Below are positions 53,681 to 64,000 of a DNA stretch of 64,000 bases, piece after piece. Each line of letters opens with the position of its first letter. Position 1 is the first letter of the stretch. Source of the stretch: Nostoc sp. 'Peltigera membranacea cyanobiont' 210A (GTDB lineage Bacteria; Cyanobacteriota; Cyanobacteriia; Cyanobacteriales; Nostocaceae); assembly GCF_002246015.1 (NCBI RefSeq), contig NZ_NOLJ01000016.1, positions 19,475 to 83,474 of the forward strand, in the 5' to 3' direction. A program made the translations under genes and the position numbers. A model generated the notes under the pieces. The model was not told where the DNA came from, ran no database searches, and was given only the letters and a program-made list of their open reading frames with translations.

Positions 53681-55033
53681 TCATGCTGGTAAATGGAAAA
53701 CGTTTAAAGCTAGAGAAATTAGGCTGAGGAACGTTAAAAACCCAATTGTATCTAGCATTGTAGTCACTAATGGGCCACTAACCAAAGCAGGGTCAAGCTT
53801 CAGCCGGGTCAAAGCCATTGGCAGTAAAGTGCCAAGGGTAACAGCCACAATTGTGTTAGTTGCCATTACCATTCCGGCAATTAAAGCCACCCATCGTTCT
53901 TGGGGTCGCGCCCAAATTAAGGAAAGCAGGATCATCGTTGTGGCTAAAGCGAGAGCTGTACCTAAACCAGCTAGAAGTTCCTTGCGAAGAATTTTTAAGG
54001 TATCTTTGGGTGTTACCTCGCCCACCCCCAAGCCGCGGATTGTTACCGTTAATGATTGAATCCCGACAGTACCACCAGTGTTAGAAAATATCGGCATAAT
54101 TACTGCTAGAACTGGCACTGCGGCAATTACAGATTGAAAAGGCGCGATCGCACTAGCCGCACCAATATACATTGCCATGATTCCCAACAGCCAAGGTAAG
54201 CGGTTGCGGATGGTGAGTAAGGGAGAGGATAAAGCTGCTTCATCACCACTGACACCCGCCAGTTTTTGGATATCTTCTGTGGCTTCCTCTTCCAAAATAT
54301 CCATGACATCATCAATGGTGACAATGCCTACCAATCGGTCTTCTCGGTCAACCACGGGGATCGCGATTAAGTCATAGCGCTGCATGATTCGCGCCACTTC
54401 TTCTTGAGGGGTTTCAGTTGTTACCTTAATGACGCGATCGCTAGCAATATCCTTGATGAAAACATCGGGAAAGGTAAACAGCAATTGGCGCAGTGAAACT
54501 ACTCTCACCAGCGTCCGGTTGTCGTCTGTGACGTATGCGTAGTAAATCGATTCCTTGTCTTCGTCCTGACGGCGGATTTTGCTCAAGGCTTCGCCTACAG
54601 TCAATCCTTGTCGCAACCGGACATATTCGGTTGTCATTACCCGCCCAGCAGTGCCTTCTGGATAGCCGAGAATCGTTGCTGTTGCTTGCCTTTGTTCTGG
54701 ACTGAGTTCCTGCAACAGCCGTTTAATTACTCCAGCAGGTAGTTCATCAAATAATTCTGCCCGTTCGTCGGGACTCATCTCTTCTACAAGTTGCACTACC
54801 TGAACATCATGGAGAGAATTAATTAGTTCTTCCTGCACCTCTGTCGGCAGATATTCAAATACATCAATTGCTTGAGCTTTGTTGAGTAAACGAAATGCGA
54901 TCGCTCGTTGTTGTTCGGGCAATTGTGTAATGTATTCTCCCACATCCACAGGTTGCAAGCGATTTAAATCCCATTTCAACTGGTTTAAATCGGTAGTATC
55001 AGTCAGCAAATCACGAATATCTTGTGTGAGCAT
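53681..55033 (-). CDS. mgtE: MgtE-family magnesium transporter
   Basis: 450 residues. MgtE N-domain (PVDVGEYITQLPEQQRAIAF ... SPDERAELFDELP), a CBS pair (about residues 135-260, including MTTEYVRLRQGLTVGEAL and IPVVDREDRLVGIVTIDDVMD), then five membrane helices with the pore signature PIFSNTGGTVGIQSLTVTIRGL. A homodimeric channel gated by Mg2+ bound to the cytosolic domains. The leader upstream has a strong hairpin next to the Shine-Dalgarno (see 55043-55094). Confidence 0.95.
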   Translation of the reverse strand: MLTQDIRDLLTDTTDLNQLKWDLNRLQPVDVGEYITQLPEQQRAIAFRLLNKAQAIDVFEYLPTEVQEELINSLHDVQVVQLVEEMSPDERAELFDELPAGVIKRLLQELSPEQRQATATILGYPEGTAGRVMTTEYVRLRQGLTVGEALSKIRRQDEDKESIYYAYVTDDNRTLVRVVSLRQLLFTFPDVFIKDIASDRVIKVTTETPQEEVARIMQRYDLIAIPVVDREDRLVGIVTIDDVMDILEEEATEDIQKLAGVSGDEAALSSPLLTIRNRLPWLLGIMAMYIGAASAIAPFQSVIAAVPVLAVIMPIFSNTGGTVGIQSLTVTIRGLGVGEVTPKDTLKILRKELLAGLGTALALATTMILLSLIWARPQERWVALIAGMVMATNTIVAVTLGTLLPMALTRLKLDPALVSGPLVTTMLDTIGFLTFLSLISLALNVFHLPA

Positions 55034-57477: not shown

Positions 57478-57713
57478 TTCCACCCACGCAGAGATCAATA
57501 TTTCTAGAGAAGATTAACGTTTCCGTATGCCCTACGGTACGGAATCCCATCTCCATGTCCCATTCCCTATAGCCCAAGTGCAAGAAACCCAATCCTTTAA
57601 GGGGTTGAATTCTGCAAGTAGTTCTGAATCAAACCATGAAAACATCTACAAAATTGCGAGCTAGCCTGGAATATTACTACATCTATACAAGTAGTATTTG
57701 GCATCAAGCAACT

Positions 57714-60700
57714 TCATGCATAGTCACCTGGACGACGCAGAATTAGAAATGGGTTGGCAGGTTTCACTTCATAGTCGTGGTAATGTGTTTGAGCTTTAGC
57801 GATCGCTGATGATGCAATCCACTCAGGATGATTATCTTGCCACAGAGGATGCCGTAAAATCAATATTGTCTGACGCTTCTGATTTTGGTGTACGTAACCA
57901 GTGAGAGTTCCGAACTGAGTGGGTAAGCCGTAACCAAGGCGTTGAAGAGTAGCGGGAATTGGCGCATTCATCCCTTGATATAATTCACTCCAAGGATTTG
58001 GAATATTGCCGTTGGGGGAATTGAGATCAATTGCAGATGAGGCTGATAACACTAATTGCGCCATATCTAAAGCTAGTCGCCAGTCTAATAAGCCGTGATA
58101 AGCAAGGTTCTGGTAATCTCGCAAACATAAGTTGCATGATGTATCACAGGCGTTTCCATGTGGCTGATTTATCCATTTGCTGGCAATGCTACTAAGAATA
58201 TTCGGATTCGCCAAATCCATCAATTTTTTAAATTCTTTTGGCTTTTCCAGAAACCGACAATATCCTGCCCCATTTTCTAGATGATCGCATAAAAAAGCCT
58301 GCCCGATAACAGATCCATTTTGCTCTAGCGATCGGAACCCAGCCTGCAACTCCATTGCATCTACATCTAATTGGGTGGCAGCTGCTACCCGCAACCAAAA
58401 TGCAAAGGAATACCAAGCCGCACGTCCGATAACTGTAGTTGGATCTGCAAAAACACCAGTAGGCCACTCTTCAATATTTACCAACAAAATATCCGTCTTC
58501 CGCCGAGATAACAATGCCACCCGATAGGTAGAACCAGATGTAGTTACTGAGGTATTCTTATCTGAAGAAACGGCATAAGCTCCGGGTTTGGGCGTACCAT
58601 AAATTGAGGCATTCTGAAAGTCAAATCCGCCAACGCCACCGTTGTCATTCACAGAAATGATCTGGTCATTGAATGCAGACACGGAAGCGTTAAGGATACG
58701 CTGGACATTGCCTACCACAGCATTTACACTTAACGATGGTCTGGTTGATTGCGGTTGCCATTCAAACTGTCCATCAAAGTCTTCTGGTTGCAAGTTAGTA
58801 AAAAAGCCCTTGGGTTCTCTAGCATCTAGACAACGCAAAGCATCCACCCCGCAGACTGGACAGATATCTGTTGGCGGTTCCTGATATCCCGGATGTGGTT
58901 TTTTTAACAATTTGTATGGGTAGATTACCGCTTGACAGTTACCACAAAGTCCTAAAGATTTATTCTCTTGGGTAAGGGCTGGTACAAGTCCTGGTTTTGA
59001 TTCTATATTCTTACCTTGGGGATATAACTCGACTACACCACAAGCTGTATGCACAGCTTTATCTTTCACCGTTTGGGAACGAGGGGCAAATTGGCTGAGG
59101 GCAATATCTAGATTCCGATCAACTACTCCCTCTGTTGGCGGCCATTGGTTGGCGCGTGTGGGAAAGCGGGTATAAAGCGATCGCACCCGCGTTGGAAAGC
59201 CAAACATCGGCAATAATCCGGCATTGGCCAGACGTTCACTCAATTTATCTTGGGTGTAAGTATCGTCTTCCACAACTGTTTGAATTTCTGGGATTAAATC
59301 ATCGCGCAGGAAATTCAACATCTGGGCATTGCTGGCGTTTGGTAAAGCTGTCTGCACTCGCAAGCTATTTAATATAGTGATTATGACTGGCTCATTCTTG
59401 GGGTCATGTAACCAATCTTGGATATCTGGTTTGTAATTTTCCCAATCAATTACACTACCAAATTCGCCGTGTACATTGTCACCTCCATTTGCAGCACTAA
59501 TACTTAAATTACTAAAAGCTTGCCGCAAAACTTCCTTGATCAGAACACGCTCAAAAATGGGTTTGCTGGTCATATCAACATAGGGCGGTGGTGGCGGATC
59601 ACCTGTGATACTTTCTGGGCGTTGGAAGTAAAAGTCATCGTGGCTTCTACCGCGACAGAAGGTAACAGCTAAGGCAACTCCCGCCGAACGTCTACCCGCG
59701 CGACCGACTCGCTGTTGATAGTTGAAGCGACGGGGTGGCATATTTGCCATCATCACTGCCAACAGCGCACCGATATCAACACCCGCCTCCATTGTAGTTG
59801 TGACGCTCAAAAGGTCGATGCCTTGGACGCGGGAGATTTCATCATTGATAAAAATATCTTGAAACCAGCGTTGGCGTTTGGTACGTTGATCTCGGTCAGT
59901 TTGTCCAGTTAACTCGGCGGCGTTCATGCGGAAGGGCTGACCTGACGAGGAAAGATAGGTATAGTAATCGAAGTCGCCAGTTGGGGTTCCAGTACCAAGT
60001 TTTTGAGGATTTTTGTTGTTAGTACGGGTATTGCATTCAGGACATAAACCAGCAGCAGGATGTAGATAGAAAGCATTGCAGCGATCGCACCGATATCCTT
60101 GATTTTTATCCGACGGTAGCATTAAATAAAGTTTATTTGGATCTAGTGACAAACTACCACTAGCGGCGATTCCAGCTTGTGACTGGAGTAATTGCTGTTG
60201 TATATCTTGAGGTTTTAAACCTGTAGACTGAATGTAGTTTTGGGCAAAGCCGGGTAAGTTGTGATCTGTTCCAGGGTAAAAAAACTTAGAATACTGGTGT
60301 CGGCGACGGATGCCCAATTGTCTAATTACTGCATCAGTCGCTTCAACTATCTTAGATGGTGTATTTTCTAGCGGTTGATAGCTGACCCACCCTTGTCCGA
60401 AACCCTCCATTGTGCGTACCATGTGATCAAACAATGGATTCATCAGTTCAGCAGTGAGCATATCTTCCAGTCGGGTAGCATGATCAGTCTGATTTTGTGT
60501 CGCTGGAAAAATTCGCGTCACCAAATTACCAGACCAGTTGTAGCATTCAAACCAAGAATACCGTTGCTGACCCGGATTTTGTCCAACTGAGTAATTCAAG
60601 GCGCGGAAACTGGAACCACCGGGACAAATACCACACTCTAATAAAGCATCTCTAACTTTTTGCCGTAATTCCAACAAAGGAATGCGTTCGGGGTAGCGTT

Positions 60701-63404
60701 TGAGTAAACCAAGCCATGCACTACTCGCCTGTTGATTACTGGCGGGTAAACCCATCACCCAGAAAAGCGCTTCTGTAACTAAGGTAGGATTAGCATTAGC
60801 AAAGCGATCGCGTCGAGTCTGATCATCTGCTGCTTGGGTAACAGCACTATAAAGATTAGCGTTTAAAGTCTGCAATTTCGCAAGACTGGCTGGGTTATTA
60901 GCACCAGTAATCCGCAAAAAGGCGATCAGGTCATCCCAATATTGAGAAAAGGACTGGATCAGTAGTAGGCGCACCATATCGCGGTAATGATCAAGTTCCA
61001 TTCCCGCAGCCAGTTTAGCTGCATCTTGGCGACTATCGGAAAATATTACCAACTTGCGAGAACTACCTAACCCCTTTTGAGACGGTGCTGGCATTTCTCG
61101 TAACAGTCCACTAGCAATAACTTGACAAGCCTTTTGAAAGCCGGTGCGATGGATACGCAAGGGAGTCGGGAATTTCTTTCGTTCACCGTAGTCAGCATCA
61201 CACCGGGGACACTTTGTTGGTAGTGCTGGTTGATCTAAATCATCTCCCGTTACCTGATACAGCCACCCTGGAATCTGATCAGTATTCGGTGGTGTGGAAT
61301 CCTGGATAAGTACGCCTGTTTGTTTGCCTAACTTTGCTTTCACCCACTGGCGTTTTATTTGATCAACAGTCCATTTTAAAACTTGAGGTTGTGTAGTCCA
61401 GGCTGGTGTTTCTCCCGGTAATGGCCAAAATACCCGATAGTTGTCGTAACGTTGATTCATCACAACCAAATCGGGTATACCTTCTAAGTTCGGCTGATCT
61501 GGGGTGAGGATATCTACTGTCAAGTTACTTAGCTTGCGAGTACTTTTATATCCTCCCAAAAAGACATCGCCACAGACTTCACAGACAATTAAATCGAGAA
61601 CGCGGGAACCACAACCGCAGCTGAGGCGATGGTTAGCATGGATAGCACCGATGGTTGGTGGATCGCTTTGTCGCTGAATTTGATCAACTTGGGTACAACT
61701 GGGGTTACAGCAAGCCCATAGGCTTTGCAAATTGTGGAAAAATAAATGTCCACGCACAGGTTGAGGCGATCGCCCATTAGCCAATTTTGACATCCCCAGT
61801 GCTAACAGTAGTCCCCGCATGGAGTCGGATACCAAACTACTACCCGCAGCATTCGGGAAAAGTTCGTTATCTAAATCTGTTTGGTGATTTTGCTTGTTTG
61901 GATATTTGACTTTCGCCGCCCGAACCGACATCTGATTAGTTTGGCGAACAACGCGATCGACTTCCTGACAAGCATCGCGCAAAGCTTCACCAGCATCAAC
62001 AATAGCTAAAGCTTCACCGAGTTGCTTTTCTTCACTAATTCCAGATTTTGAGTATCCCAACTTGCTGGCCAAAGTAGACATAGCCACAGTCTTTGCCGTT
62101 GGATCTGGCTGTGTCATCGACTCTAATGGATCAGGCTGCACTGACTGGGCAAACTCTGCAAAGGCAGTTTCATATTTAACCAGAGATTTTCTCGCGTTGG
62201 CTTTTGGCTGTTGTTGTTGTCCAGTGATGAAAGCAAACTGTTTGTCATCACGTCCAAAAAATTCGCGCAAGAATTTTCTTCCTTCTGGATTATCATCCAA
62301 GCTTGCTGTAGTCGTGATTATCCGCAGCTTTGGCGAATCTGGCGTTAAACCCAACCGCGAAAAAAGCAAGCGTAAAATATAGGCAACTTCCGTTCCTGGA
62401 GTGCCACGATAGGCGTGTAGTTCGTCAATAATCAGGAAAAATTGCCGTTCTGGATGATTTGGTTCAGCCAGCCAGTCACGAGTTATATCAAAAATATCGT
62501 TTTCAATGCTCCGCATCATCATAATGTTGAGCATCGAGTAGTTAGTAATTAGAATATCTGGTGGAGTATCTTGCATATCCCAACGTGACCACATTTCCCC
62601 GCCATCAAGTCGAGGAAAGTAGTAAGGTAAATCGGGATTTAAAGATAAATTCGCCTGAAGTAAATTTTGTTGCTGTTTGGCACACTCATCTAATTCGTTT
62701 CGCAGTCGTTTGATTTTATTAGGTGTTGGTTCACCCGGAATCGGGGTTTGTCCAGTGTAACGCCCAAAGGTGATCCGATTTGTGCCGCGTTCTCTATCCA
62801 GCCAATTGTGGATTTCTGGCGCTTCCAGGGCTTTTCTGAGTCGTCGCAATTGGTCTTCTACCAAGGCGTTGAGAGGATAGAGTATCAAACCTCGCATAGC
62901 TTTGGGGCGAGTGACGTGTTTCCACTGAGAGACGCGATCGCCCTGAACATCCCACCAGCAATGATGAATCGGTGGGGGCGGACTTGCTTCCCAAGTTCTA
63001 GATTCCCAGGCTAAATGGGCGAGTAGTGGCAATAAAAAGCACTCAGTTTTCCCGGAACCTGTACCAGTGGTAACAACTAAATCTTTTTGGTTGATTAAGA
63101 CTTCTTCTAAACTTTCCCACTGGTGTTGATAAAGTTCGATTCCCCCTTCAAACAGCATTTTTCCCAGTTGTGCCAAATCATGGTATTTTCTAGGCAGTTG
63201 TTTAGCAGCAGTTTGCAAGTCTCTCCCAGATGAGGGATAAATCGGAACTGGTTCAATTAAAGGCGGTTGGCTTAAAATACCTGGTTGTTGTAAAAGGCGA
63301 TCGCGTTCTGCCGCTAAAGAGCGATAACGTAGGGGAAAGGCACTTTTAATATACAGCTGATAGATATGGTTAAGTCGTTGATACGCTCCAACTACGTCAT
63401 GCAC
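57714..63404 (-). CDS. Giant DEAD/DEAH-box helicase with DUF1998-type C-terminal domain
   Basis: 1896 residues. Superfamily 2 helicase: motif I TTGTGSGKTE (112-121), motif Ia LILYPLNALVEDQ, Walker B DELH (327-330) in LIIDELHAYRGTPG, motif III TTTASL (365-370), and far downstream motif V/VI TTTMEAGVDIGAL and QRVGRAGRR. The middle and end hold four-cysteine clusters (CPRCDADY, CDRCNAFYLHPAAGLCPEC, LCGNCQAV ... CPVCG). The last cluster is CDTSCNLCLRDYQNLAYHGLLDWRLAL, the DUF1998 signature. Architecture and size resemble DruE of Druantia, DpdJ or an enlarged MrfA, so a defence or DNA-repair role is likely. Starts at GTG 63404, overlapping the upstream gene by 8 nt. Confidence 0.92.
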   Translation of the reverse strand: MHDVVGAYQRLNHIYQLYIKSAFPLRYRSLAAERDRLLQQPGILSQPPLIEPVPIYPSSGRDLQTAAKQLPRKYHDLAQLGKMLFEGGIELYQHQWESLEEVLINQKDLVVTTGTGSGKTECFLLPLLAHLAWESRTWEASPPPPIHHCWWDVQGDRVSQWKHVTRPKAMRGLILYPLNALVEDQLRRLRKALEAPEIHNWLDRERGTNRITFGRYTGQTPIPGEPTPNKIKRLRNELDECAKQQQNLLQANLSLNPDLPYYFPRLDGGEMWSRWDMQDTPPDILITNYSMLNIMMMRSIENDIFDITRDWLAEPNHPERQFFLIIDELHAYRGTPGTEVAYILRLLFSRLGLTPDSPKLRIITTTASLDDNPEGRKFLREFFGRDDKQFAFITGQQQQPKANARKSLVKYETAFAEFAQSVQPDPLESMTQPDPTAKTVAMSTLASKLGYSKSGISEEKQLGEALAIVDAGEALRDACQEVDRVVRQTNQMSVRAAKVKYPNKQNHQTDLDNELFPNAAGSSLVSDSMRGLLLALGMSKLANGRSPQPVRGHLFFHNLQSLWACCNPSCTQVDQIQRQSDPPTIGAIHANHRLSCGCGSRVLDLIVCEVCGDVFLGGYKSTRKLSNLTVDILTPDQPNLEGIPDLVVMNQRYDNYRVFWPLPGETPAWTTQPQVLKWTVDQIKRQWVKAKLGKQTGVLIQDSTPPNTDQIPGWLYQVTGDDLDQPALPTKCPRCDADYGERKKFPTPLRIHRTGFQKACQVIASGLLREMPAPSQKGLGSSRKLVIFSDSRQDAAKLAAGMELDHYRDMVRLLLIQSFSQYWDDLIAFLRITGANNPASLAKLQTLNANLYSAVTQAADDQTRRDRFANANPTLVTEALFWVMGLPASNQQASSAWLGLLKRYPERIPLLELRQKVRDALLECGICPGGSSFRALNYSVGQNPGQQRYSWFECYNWSGNLVTRIFPATQNQTDHATRLEDMLTAELMNPLFDHMVRTMEGFGQGWVSYQPLENTPSKIVEATDAVIRQLGIRRRHQYSKFFYPGTDHNLPGFAQNYIQSTGLKPQDIQQQLLQSQAGIAASGSLSLDPNKLYLMLPSDKNQGYRCDRCNAFYLHPAAGLCPECNTRTNNKNPQKLGTGTPTGDFDYYTYLSSSGQPFRMNAAELTGQTDRDQRTKRQRWFQDIFINDEISRVQGIDLLSVTTTMEAGVDIGALLAVMMANMPPRRFNYQQRVGRAGRRSAGVALAVTFCRGRSHDDFYFQRPESITGDPPPPPYVDMTSKPIFERVLIKEVLRQAFSNLSISAANGGDNVHGEFGSVIDWENYKPDIQDWLHDPKNEPVIITILNSLRVQTALPNASNAQMLNFLRDDLIPEIQTVVEDDTYTQDKLSERLANAGLLPMFGFPTRVRSLYTRFPTRANQWPPTEGVVDRNLDIALSQFAPRSQTVKDKAVHTACGVVELYPQGKNIESKPGLVPALTQENKSLGLCGNCQAVIYPYKLLKKPHPGYQEPPTDICPVCGVDALRCLDAREPKGFFTNLQPEDFDGQFEWQPQSTRPSLSVNAVVGNVQRILNASVSAFNDQIISVNDNGGVGGFDFQNASIYGTPKPGAYAVSSDKNTSVTTSGSTYRVALLSRRKTDILLVNIEEWPTGVFADPTTVIGRAAWYSFAFWLRVAAATQLDVDAMELQAGFRSLEQNGSVIGQAFLCDHLENGAGYCRFLEKPKEFKKLMDLANPNILSSIASKWINQPHGNACDTSCNLCLRDYQNLAYHGLLDWRLALDMAQLVLSASSAIDLNSPNGNIPNPWSELYQGMNAPIPATLQRLGYGLPTQFGTLTGYVHQNQKRQTILILRHPLWQDNHPEWIASSAIAKAQTHYHDYEVKPANPFLILRRPGDYA

Positions 63405-64000
63405 AGATTAAAGCCTCTTCATATTTAACATTCAGCTTTTGACACAACTGATAGGCAACTTCCCCACCTACGTTTTGATACAGCAGCCAGTTGCCCTGAT
63501 ATGTTGGTAGTTGTCCAGATGCCAGCACTAAAGCACGTTCATATAGTTCAGGCCAGCGCTGCTTGACTGGTATTGCCAAACACTTTGTAGCAAAATTGTA
63601 ATGAGCTTGGCAAGATGCACCATGATGATGCAAAGCTAGAAAGCGCAAACCATACCAATCACCTTGATGCCAAGTGTTAGTGTTTTGGTTATAAAAAAGG
63701 GTGTAGCGAAGGTTTCGCTTTTCATCAAACATCAGATACATCCCTGTTTCGTGAGGAATACCGCAGATTTCAAAATCCTCACCGTCAAAGTGCTGCCATT
63801 CCCACTGACTCGGCACAATTCCCGGCATATTTCTCAGACTTTGCTGCCAACTAGCGATATCAGGTAGAATTTGGGCAAGTCGTGTGGATACTTCACCCGC
63901 GTTGATGATTGGAAAATTATTTGCGATCGCATCAGGGTTACTCACCACCAATTTAATGCAGGGTGGTGCTTCCCCTCTGGATTGATGAGTAATAGATGCT
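63397..64000 (-). CDS. Unknown protein translationally coupled to the giant helicase (5' end outside window)
   Basis: At least 200 codons; the frame is open to the window edge (no stop between 63951 and 64000), so the gene continues beyond 64000 and the TTG at 63951 is not the true start. The visible C-terminal part (ARLAQILPDIASWQQSLRNM-like helix, EWQHFDGEDFEICGIPHETG, YNQNTNTWHQGDWYGLRFLALHHHG, NWLLYQNVGGEVAYQLCQKL) is soluble and rich in Trp and His. I recognise no family. It overlaps the helicase start by 8 nt, so the two proteins very probably act together, perhaps as helicase and specificity partner. Confidence 0.78.
   Translation of the reverse strand, partial: ASITHQSRGEAPPCIKLVVSNPDAIANNFPIINAGEVSTRLAQILPDIASWQQSLRNMPGIVPSQWEWQHFDGEDFEICGIPHETGMYLMFDEKRNLRYTLFYNQNTNTWHQGDWYGLRFLALHHHGASCQAHYNFATKCLAIPVKQRWPELYERALVLASGQLPTYQGNWLLYQNVGGEVAYQLCQKLNVKYEEALICA

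What the first reader, a model, noticed from the sequence alone, without database searches (positions are those of the whole stretch)
57714..64000. Giant DUF1998 helicase with a translationally coupled unknown partner
Seen: a 1896-residue SF2 helicase with intact motifs I, II, III and VI, several Cys4 clusters and the DUF1998 signature at the end, overlapping by 8 nt the end of an unrecognised gene that leaves the window. Known: helicase-DUF1998 fusions of this size occur in Druantia (DruE), the Dpd DNA-modification/restriction system (DpdJ) and, shorter, as the repair helicase MrfA. Inference: this is part of a multi-gene phage-defence or DNA-repair module whose other genes lie beyond 64000. 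The partner does not look like a protein I know from these systems, so it may be a new variant.
Basis: partly seen in the sequence, partly recalled or inferred. Interest (0 to 1): 0.72.

Follow-up and report, generated by a model that had tools for sequence, protein, structure and literature searches.

The report
Cyanobacterial Druantia type IV defence operon
The giant helicase and its partner are the last two genes of a three-gene anti-virus operon of the known Druantia family, in a little-studied variant whose partner protein carries an extra domain and whose relatives often sit beside DNA-modification-like genes.

Summary
In detail: an intact 1896-aa helicase (57714-63404, minus) overlaps by 8 nt a gene that runs off the window. 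Beyond it the operon has three genes: druF-like (561 aa), druL-like (448 aa, probably 437), druE. The helicase matches DruE4 over its full length (1612 bits; DpdJ 57), the partner DruL4, the first gene DruF2/DruF4. DruE+DruF+DruL without DruM/DruG is Druantia type IV (Payne 2021), so the partner is a known component of unknown function, not a new family.

Three things are new or little described. (1) These loci form a clade (43 of the 80 DruE in my tree, support 0.98) in which DruL has an extra N-terminal domain (38 of 43, against 0 of 37 outside); its predicted fold resembles the NusG NGN domain. (2) The clade lacks DruK nuclease (0 of 43 against 15 of 37) and, but for one locus, DruM; 16 of 43 loci carry a GNAT/guanine-transglycosylase + BrxC-like ATPase cassette (0 of 37). 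(3) In the genus the site is a conserved slot: 6 of 53 genomes keep this type of cassette (three with damaged druE), and 18 of 37 examined sites without it hold druE remnants.

Phage defence is inferred from family membership, not tested.

The parts
57714..63404 (-). druE: YprA-family SF2 helicase of Druantia, 1896 aa, GTG start
   Evidence: (DruE4 PDLC00051 1611.6 bits, residues 2-1894 against 4-1818/1829)
63397..64000 (-). druL (3' part, last 200 codons in the window; whole gene = contig C8:82871-84217, 448 aa, likely 437). The window holds the second half of the DruL core; the N-terminal NGN-like domain (about residues 12-115) lies outside the window
   Evidence: (DruL4 PDLC00057 76.4 bits over residues 159-438). 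The first gene, druF (561 aa, C8:84211-85896), lies wholly beyond 64000
63397..63404 (-). 8-nt overlap of the druL stop and the druE GTG start (GTGCATGA)
63045..63068 (-). helicase motif I (Walker A) of DruE, residues 113-120
62415..62426 (-). helicase motif II (DELH) of DruE, residues 327-330
59691..59714 (-). helicase motif VI (QRVGRAGR) of DruE, residues 1231-1238
58125..58148 (-). C-terminal Cys cluster (DUF1998-type position), residues 1753-1760
57602..57680 (.). 79-bp imperfect direct repeat (69 of 79 identical) of the 5' end of the neighbouring GH15/phosphorylase-kinase-like gene, just beyond the druE stop; the other copy is C8:86444-86522, on the far side of the cassette and outside the window

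Best explanation
The feature is the 3' part (all of druE and the end of druL) of a three-gene Druantia type IV operon (druF-druL-druE), an anti-phage system. Shown here: gene content, gene order, full-length DruE match, conserved helicase motifs, conservation of druL with druE across phyla, occurrence on plasmids, patchy presence at one chromosomal slot. Inferred: DruE is an ATP-driven DNA translocase/helicase that engages phage DNA intermediates, as its type III relative does. DruF (helical N-terminus plus beta domains, one of them Ig-like, in the model) and DruL (an NGN-like domain, a winged-helix-like segment, and a C-terminal region of unknown fold) would form the sensor/adaptor part that recruits or licenses DruE. 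The family searches found no credible nuclease in DruF or DruL, and DruK was not seen in this clade, so restriction probably works by unwinding or blocking phage DNA together with host nucleases, or through an unrecognised nuclease domain. The step from sequence to mechanism is inference.
For: DruE4 1611.6 bits and DruE2 1534.7 bits over the full length, DpdJ only 57.3. Partner: DruL4 76.4 bits, and the C-terminal part of DruF2 (positions 738-1028/1030, 29.1 bits); first gene: DruF2 79.7, DruF4 67.8 bits. The definition of type IV (DruE+DruF+DruL, no DruM/DruG) was read in PMC8565338 (passages). One relative has DruF and DruL fused in a 1040-aa protein, with DruF4 538.8 and DruL4 285.1 bits (L039), which suggests that the two act together. 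DruL with DruE conserved; DruF, DruL and DruE in a row in the near relatives. Plasmid copies of DruL in 3 of 72,556 records, one typed as conjugative; the Deinococcus plasmid copy lies beside type III CRISPR genes. DruE has solved homologues: 9wae_A matched over profile positions 3-1866 (1100 bits), 9tu7_Y, and YprA 6znp. DruE of Druantia III is described as a helicase-nuclease effector engaging ssDNA-containing intermediates (PMC13192584, abstract and passages).
Against: I saw no activity data for type IV; among the 25 papers listed (of 80) for DruL, DruF or 'Druantia type IV' only the 2021 paper is about this system. DruF scores slightly better with DruF2 than with DruF4, so the type IV label rests on DruL and on the lack of DruM/DruG. 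I recognised no defence genes by eye in the 29 kb read beyond druF; a 125-aa PD-(D/E)XK_3 protein there is the nearest thing. Foldseek found no match below E 0.001 for either partner. Three of the six copies of this type in the genus have a damaged druE, so selection to keep the system is weak or intermittent.
Confidence: 0.78

Rival explanations
1. The helicase is an MrfA/YprA-type DNA-repair enzyme with an accessory gene, not defence.
For: YprA-family helicases include MrfA, which is a repair enzyme; 6znp (YprA) matches the DruE profile.
Against: The YprA match is weak beside DruE (6znp 72.7 bits with the family profile, DruE4 1611.6 with our protein). The operon is patchy: DruL in 16 of 292 genomes of the phylum and 12 of 53 of the genus at E 0.001, 9 of the 12 at 59% identity or more over nearly the whole protein. 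It occurs on plasmids and is decayed in sisters. That is unlike a housekeeping repair gene.
Confidence: 0.07
2. The helicase is DpdJ of a 7-deazaguanine DNA modification-restriction (Dpd) system.
For: Some weak DpdJ similarity (57.3 bits; NF041067 53.4 bits). Relatives in the same clade often lie next to a DpdA-like transglycosylase.
Against: DruE4 scores about 28 times higher in bits; NCBIfam's DpdJ cut-off is 800 bits. No DpdA-like gene in this operon; the one match to a clade-A GNAT-TGT protein in this genome covers only the GNAT part (query residues 23-144).
Confidence: 0.02
3. The operon is a relic on its way out: intact by chance, with no present function.
For: 18 of 37 sites without the cassette hold druE remnants. 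DruL is 86-90% identical between ours and the other five, while the two neighbouring proteins of those genomes are 96-99%.
Against: All three ORFs are intact here and in G125, and L040 (= G334) also has three open ORFs; helicase motifs are intact.
Confidence: 0.13

Closest known systems
Druantia type IV (Payne et al. 2021, PADLOC; PMC8565338, passages seen)
   Same: DruE + DruF + DruL, no DruM and no DruG; DruL of unknown function
   Different: DruL 448 aa (probably 437) against PADLOC models of 309 and 330 aa, with an extra N-terminal domain; DruF 561 aa against DruF4 models of 678-703 aa; no DruK nuclease gene after druE
Druantia type II (DruE, DruF, DruM, DruG; 'Type IV CoCoNuT' in PMC12458937, passages seen)
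   Same: DruE2 1534.7 bits over the full length; two DruF2 models match both upstream genes
   Different: No methyltransferase DruM and no DruG recognised in the operon; DruF and DruL are separate genes
Druantia type III (DruH-DruE; PMC13192584 abstract and passages; PMC13316683 only as a search listing)
   Same: A DruE helicase; a solved 2108-aa helicase that I take, from memory and its size, to be type III (9tu7_Y) matches our DruE profile
   Different: No DruH recognised; type III DruE is reported to carry an active C-terminal PLD nuclease, while in the last hundred residues of ours only W1805, H1852, P1853 and R1891 are invariant in 15 sequences
BRC (BREX-related capture) system, PMC12839542 (passages seen)
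   Same: Neighbours of 16 of 43 clade-A relatives resemble parts of it (GNAT-TGT fusion, BrxC/D-like ATPase)
   Different: Not in this operon; I did not search for HerA and PglZ, and in two of the three genus loci read, three further genes (one of them PRTase-CE in G292) stood with the cassette

Membership tests
Druantia (any type) | DruE, a giant YprA-family SF2 helicase | tested here: met
   DruE4 1611.6 bits, 2-1894 of 1896; motifs
Druantia type IV | DruF present in the operon | tested here: met
   DruF2 79.7, DruF4 67.8 bits; moderate scores, the best ones over the first 190 residues (one DruF4 model over 3-480)
Druantia type IV | DruL present in the operon | tested here: met
   DruL4 76.4 bits, model 3-302/309
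Druantia type IV | No DruM and no DruG | tested here: met
   In the operon and next to it: no further gene in the operon; PADLOC names neither the GH15 gene nor the glycosyltransferase on its two sides. Farther ORFs were mostly not scanned, and a gene elsewhere in the genome cannot be ruled out
Druantia type IV | Protection against phage | not testable with these tools
Druantia type II | DruM and DruG present | tested here: not met
   with the limits given above
Dpd (DpdJ) | DpdJ above the curated cut-off and dpdA nearby | tested here: not met
   53.4 bits against a cut-off of 800; no dpdA in the operon
MrfA/YprA repair helicase | Stand-alone helicase or MrfAB pair (the solved YprA chain has 751 aa) | tested here: not met
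   1896 aa with druF and druL upstream; YprA 6znp 72.7 bits with the family profile
NusG/Spt5 NGN domain (for DruL residues 15-112) | NGN fold | tested here: inconclusive
   the 18 best rows are all NusG/Spt5, Z 8.5 to 6.5 (9a56_B Z 8.3, 2.5 A over 87 residues), first other fold Z 6.2; Foldseek alone not significant; no NusG family among the 25 families shown of 26 matched by 56 members at E 1
NusG/Spt5 NGN domain (for DruL residues 15-112) | Sequence profile similarity | tested here: inconclusive
   HHalign score 26.8, E 3.8e-4 for one comparison, probability 36%, 39 columns only; 1 of 300 column shuffles scored higher. With a narrower NusG set 22.4, 0 of 300 shuffles but 2 of 50 windows of other Druantia regions scored higher

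The most novel reading that the evidence does not exclude
Clade-A Druantia is a separate subtype in which the DruM methyl mark has been replaced by (or become dispensable beside) a guanine-transglycosylase self-mark supplied by a neighbouring GNAT-TGT/BrxC-like cassette, as in Dpd. DruL carries a NusG-like domain that docks the system on transcribing RNA polymerase, so that it samples phage DNA while it is being transcribed. The operon in this window would be the stripped three-gene form.
Probability: 0.12. Interest if true: 0.8.

Novelty: new variant of a known kind. Interest (0 to 1): 0.5.

Why it matters
I found no published mechanism for Druantia type IV, and its DruF and DruL are bare names. 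This locus and its relatives give DruL and DruF confident fold predictions. They show a natural DruF-DruL fusion, a clade-specific extra DruL domain, and an exchange of neighbours (DruM/DruK outside the clade, a guanine-transglycosylase cassette inside it) that raises a testable self-marking question. The genus-level slot with intact, broken and vestigial copies at one place is a good natural series for asking why the system is lost so often.

Tried and rejected
Shifted gene boundary: I first thought the extra N-terminal part of DruL was the C-terminal end of the longer DruF of other type IV systems, because the summed lengths agree (561+448 against about 690+310). HHalign of the DruL N-domain against the DruF of ten loci of the other group gave probability 0.1%, and 0.5% with two fused proteins added; a domain search over the ORFs of 97 loci found it in DruL proteins only. 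Rejected.

NGN homology was not accepted as shown: two of 50 real-protein windows (overlapping, in DruE) beat it in one set-up, and one of 300 shuffles beat it in the other. A first run with badly cut NusG sequences is superseded.

Catalytic function for DruF or DruL: no Pfam match for DruL up to E 10 and only one, at E 0.23, for DruF, no NCBIfam match up to E 0.01. Among members of the two alignments only scattered weak hits, one to three members each (best E 0.0036 PseudoU_synth_1 in one DruL; 0.002 Tnp_DNA_bind and 0.16 RNaseH_pPIWI_RE in single DruF). The best PDB sequence matches have E 0.24. Foldseek: nothing below E 0.001 in PDB or, for DruL, in viral models. VIA-align rows for DruF are mostly Ig-like domains over residues 442-534, Z up to 9.7, a common fold; other parts of both models are barely tested. 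DruF was not detected by my profile in many loci of the other group; I make no claim of absence there.

Phage records: no DruL at E 0.01 in 50,697. The viral contig scan failed for want of conserved stretches and I did not try it in another form. I could not find out which Druantia type 9wae comes from (one search found no paper on it); my DruF and DruL profiles detect no chain in the PDB at E below 0.24. The CoCoNuT paper PMC11090510 (passages) does not contain DruF or DruG.
Full report
OBSERVATION. The helicase ORF is real and intact: 57714-63404 minus, 1896 aa, GTG start. In its 8.3-Mb genome the other three matches to it score about 33 bits or less. The next gene overlaps its start by GTGCATGA, 8 nt. 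Helicase motifs I, II and VI and 17 of 33 cysteines are conserved in 15 aligned sequences. Pfam finds DEAD and Helicase_C but lists no DUF1998 model up to E 1; the C-terminal Cys cluster is nevertheless conserved.

WHAT LIES BEYOND THE WINDOW. The window is contig C8:19475-83474 of the genome. Beyond it the partner is 448 aa (C8:82871-84217) and a third gene of 561 aa (C8:84211-85896) precedes it, all on the minus strand. Upstream of that, on the other strand, is a 1076-aa GH15/phosphorylase-kinase-like gene; on the other side lie a glycosyltransferase and the ORF at window 53681-55033, which I call mgtE-like from memory of such sequences; no call names it. Close relatives are Nostoc (L040, L041), so the host is probably Nostoc.

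WHAT IT IS. PADLOC profiles name the helicase DruE4 (1611.6 bits, full length), then DruE2 (1534.7 and 1500.7), with DpdJ at 57.3. The partner is DruL4 (76.4 bits over residues 159-438) and the first gene DruF2/DruF4 (79.7/67.8 bits). Payne et al. 2021 (PMC8565338; passages seen) define Druantia type IV by DruE, DruF and a hypothetical protein DruL, without DruM and DruG. In a search of the library for DruL, DruF or 'Druantia type IV', the only paper of the 25 listed (of 80) that is about this system was that one. One relative has DruF and DruL in one protein of 1040 aa (L039; DruF4 538.8 bits over residues 37-697, DruL4 285.1 bits over 728-1039); L109 has a 909-aa protein that my DruF and DruL profiles both match.

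CONSERVATION. DruL was found in 16 of 292 genomes of the phylum. Of these 80, 71 have a DruL; in the other 9, druE begins within 124 nt of the edge of the locus, so upstream DNA is missing. In 70 of the 71, DruL is upstream on the same strand, 69 times within 350 nt; L044 has 2.2 kb between them and L049 has its DruL-like protein elsewhere. The 80 best are not a random sample.

A CLADE WITH AN EXTRA DOMAIN. I built a DruE tree of the 80 sequences with an ORF of at least 1500 aa, out of 97 loci: 15 from this genome and the phylum search and 65 from the named genomes. L080, a duplicate of L033, and 16 loci with shorter or broken DruE were dropped; some sister genomes are near-duplicates. Forty-three, ours included, form a clade with support 0.983 after midpoint rooting. 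In 38 of the 43, and in 0 of the other 37, DruL has an extra N-terminal domain at E 1e-5. The five without are L033, L045, L049, L059 and L081; L045 has no upstream sequence. PADLOC's DruL models begin at residue 159 of our protein. The AlphaFold2 model of DruL (pLDDT 89.4, pTM 0.75) gives, for residues 15-112, NusG/Spt5 structures in the first 18 rows of VIA-align (Z 8.5-6.5; first other fold Z 6.2). Foldseek itself is not significant. Profile comparison with 59 NusG-type sequences gives score 26.8, E 3.8e-4, over 39 columns that begin at a shared RWY motif; 1 of 300 column shuffles scored higher, and 0 of 50 windows of Druantia proteins against NusG did. With 29 NusG sequences of the phylum the score was 22.4; 0 of 300 shuffles but 2 of 50 Druantia windows against the N-domain scored higher. 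No NusG family is among the Pfam families shown for 56 members. I therefore call it NGN-like in fold, with homology open. Residues about 150-215 resemble winged helices (Z 5.9 and 5.2). DruF (pLDDT 88.0, pTM 0.85) is helical to about residue 242, then beta-rich, with an Ig-like domain at 442-534 (Z up to 9.7).

NEIGHBOURS DIFFER BY CLADE. A PD-(D/E)XK protein (DruK in PADLOC, two members scanned) belongs to 15 of 37 loci outside the clade, in 14 of them starting within 200 nt of the end of druE and in L083 332 nt from it, and to 0 of 43 inside. Thirty-three of the 43 and 30 of the 37 have at least 1.2 kb of DNA there. DruM-type methyltransferases: 15 of 37 outside, 1 of 43 inside (L082). A cassette of a GNAT protein with a DpdA-like C-terminal half (NF041059, 28.7 bits, E 5.7e-7, well below its cut-off of 200, in the member L048; a second member, L046, showed the GNAT part only), a protein of about 280 aa and an ATPase of up to 1463 aa with weak BrxC/D similarity in some members lies in 16 of 43 inside and 0 of 37 outside; L099, dropped from the tree for its broken druE, has it too. 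The three AAA entries outside the clade (L102, L107, L118) are a different protein that the search also drew in. No locus has both DruM and the transglycosylase. The cassette occurs upstream or downstream and on either strand; in L048, L064 and L068 all six genes run in one direction with the cassette first, and in L072 with the cassette last. The transglycosylase half keeps D221 and G223 (in a DSGG motif in L048), D393, and an H-C-C-H set (443, 445, 448, 464) at 95% or more in the 16 rows aligned; I assign these to catalytic and zinc sites from memory.

In the genus, a full-length match to the cassette protein is present in exactly three of 53 genomes (G292, G293, G338), the same three that hold a DruL of 59-62% identity to ours, 11-14 kb from it. 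In G338 druE of that copy is split. In G338 and G292 three further genes lie between cassette and druE, one of them PRTase-CE (PF24390, 78.7 bits in G292), and a TnsD/TniQ gene (392 bits) stands near the G292 copy; the G292 stretch is on the same contig as L046, by its length. The BRC system of PMC12839542 (passages) has GNAT, TGT and BrxC homologues with HerA and PglZ; the main text held does not contain the word Druantia. Our own locus has neither DruM nor this cassette.

A SLOT IN THE GENUS. Matches to the mgtE-like and the GH15 protein were found in 53 of 53 genomes of the genus. The two genes could be placed on one contig in 46; in five they are on different contigs, and in two I saw only distant mgtE-like matches. 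Of the 46, the gap is 0.7-5.3 kb in 38 (one of them, G310, in another orientation), 9.7-11.9 kb in five, and three are farther apart in another orientation (G331, G293, G314). The five wide ones are exactly those with a DruL of our type in the gap (G000, G125, G303, G329, G334); a sixth copy (G333) is on a broken contig. I read 37 of the 38 narrow gaps (G310 left out): 18 hold remnants of druE, in 16 of them the very 3' end of the gene, and 19 hold none. Many share much the same remnant, so these are not 18 independent losses. In our genome a 79-bp direct repeat (69 of 79 identical) of the 5' end of the GH15 gene flanks the cassette. G329 also has two copies and G323 two around a remnant, while G125, G303 and G334 show one, so the repeat is not a general mark of the cassette. 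In G338 the site is closed exactly at the repeat, as loss by recombination between the copies would leave it.

MOBILITY. DruL occurs on 3 of 72,556 plasmid records (Oscillatoria nigro-viridis pOSC7112.01, typed conjugative; Calothrix pCAL6303.03, mobilizable; Deinococcus aquaticus pDATS03, non-mobilizable), each time with a hypothetical protein before it and a DEAD/DEAH helicase after it, and in none of 50,697 phage records.

MECHANISM. Bell et al. (PMC12458937; abstract, sections 5 and 7 and passages seen) describe DruE as a YprA-family helicase with zinc modules, and the C-terminal Vsr domain of types I and II as inactive. Work on type III (PMC13192584; abstract and passages) makes DruE a helicase-nuclease acting on ssDNA-containing intermediates and sees partner proteins as what activates it. 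From this I infer that DruF and DruL are the sensor/adaptor and DruE the motor; that no nuclease has been recognised in this clade's three core genes suggests unwinding or hand-over to host nucleases. None of this is tested here.

VERDICT. A known kind of system, Druantia type IV, in a clade with a distinct DruL and distinct neighbours.

Noticed in passing
L048:735-6913, L064, L068, L046, L043 and 11 other clade-A loci, and L099: A GNAT-transglycosylase (DpdA-like) fusion, a ~280-aa protein and a BrxC/D-like ATPase lie beside clade-A Druantia operons in 16 of 43 loci and 0 of 37 others; cassette first and co-directional with druF-druL-druE in three. The GNAT and transglycosylase halves are separate ORFs in several.
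   Followed up: partly
L203, L205 (G338, G292), between the cassette and druE: Three further genes: ~288 aa, a 422-424-aa protein (AAA-like in G292), and a PRTase-CE protein (PF24390, 78.7 bits in G292); relatives of all three also in L043 and L099. A TnsD/TniQ gene (392 bits) stands near the G292 copy.
   Followed up: partly
L034, L035, L036, L037 (between druF and druL): An extra ORF of 583-642 aa in four small-genome relatives of the phylum; the two scanned with PADLOC and three with Pfam match no family credibly. Iterated search links it to DruC-like proteins of L102, L106, L107 and L118.
   Followed up: partly
L035:1403-3322, L037:1147-2850, L151:21384-23105 (Deinococcus plasmid): A NERD-type protein downstream of druE in three loci; two match NERD-helicase models, the third is annotated as a NERD-domain protein.
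   Followed up: no
L049, L060, L063, L065, L069, L071, L073, L082: A weakly UvrD/GajB-like protein, mostly about 660-715 aa, near the operon in 8 of 43 clade-A loci.
   Followed up: no
genus-wide, between the mgtE-like gene (window 53681-55033) and the GH15 gene: A conserved slot of 0.7 to 11.9 kb with intact, broken and vestigial Druantia copies; 18 of 37 read sites without the cassette hold druE remnants.
   Followed up: yes
L005:13727-14104 (beyond the window): A 125-aa PD-(D/E)XK_3 protein (Pfam PF13366, 147.9 bits) behind the GH15 gene, not part of the operon.
   Followed up: no
L049: DruF and DruE adjacent without DruL between them; a DruL-like protein of 460 aa sits 2.6 kb past druE on the other strand.
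   Followed up: no
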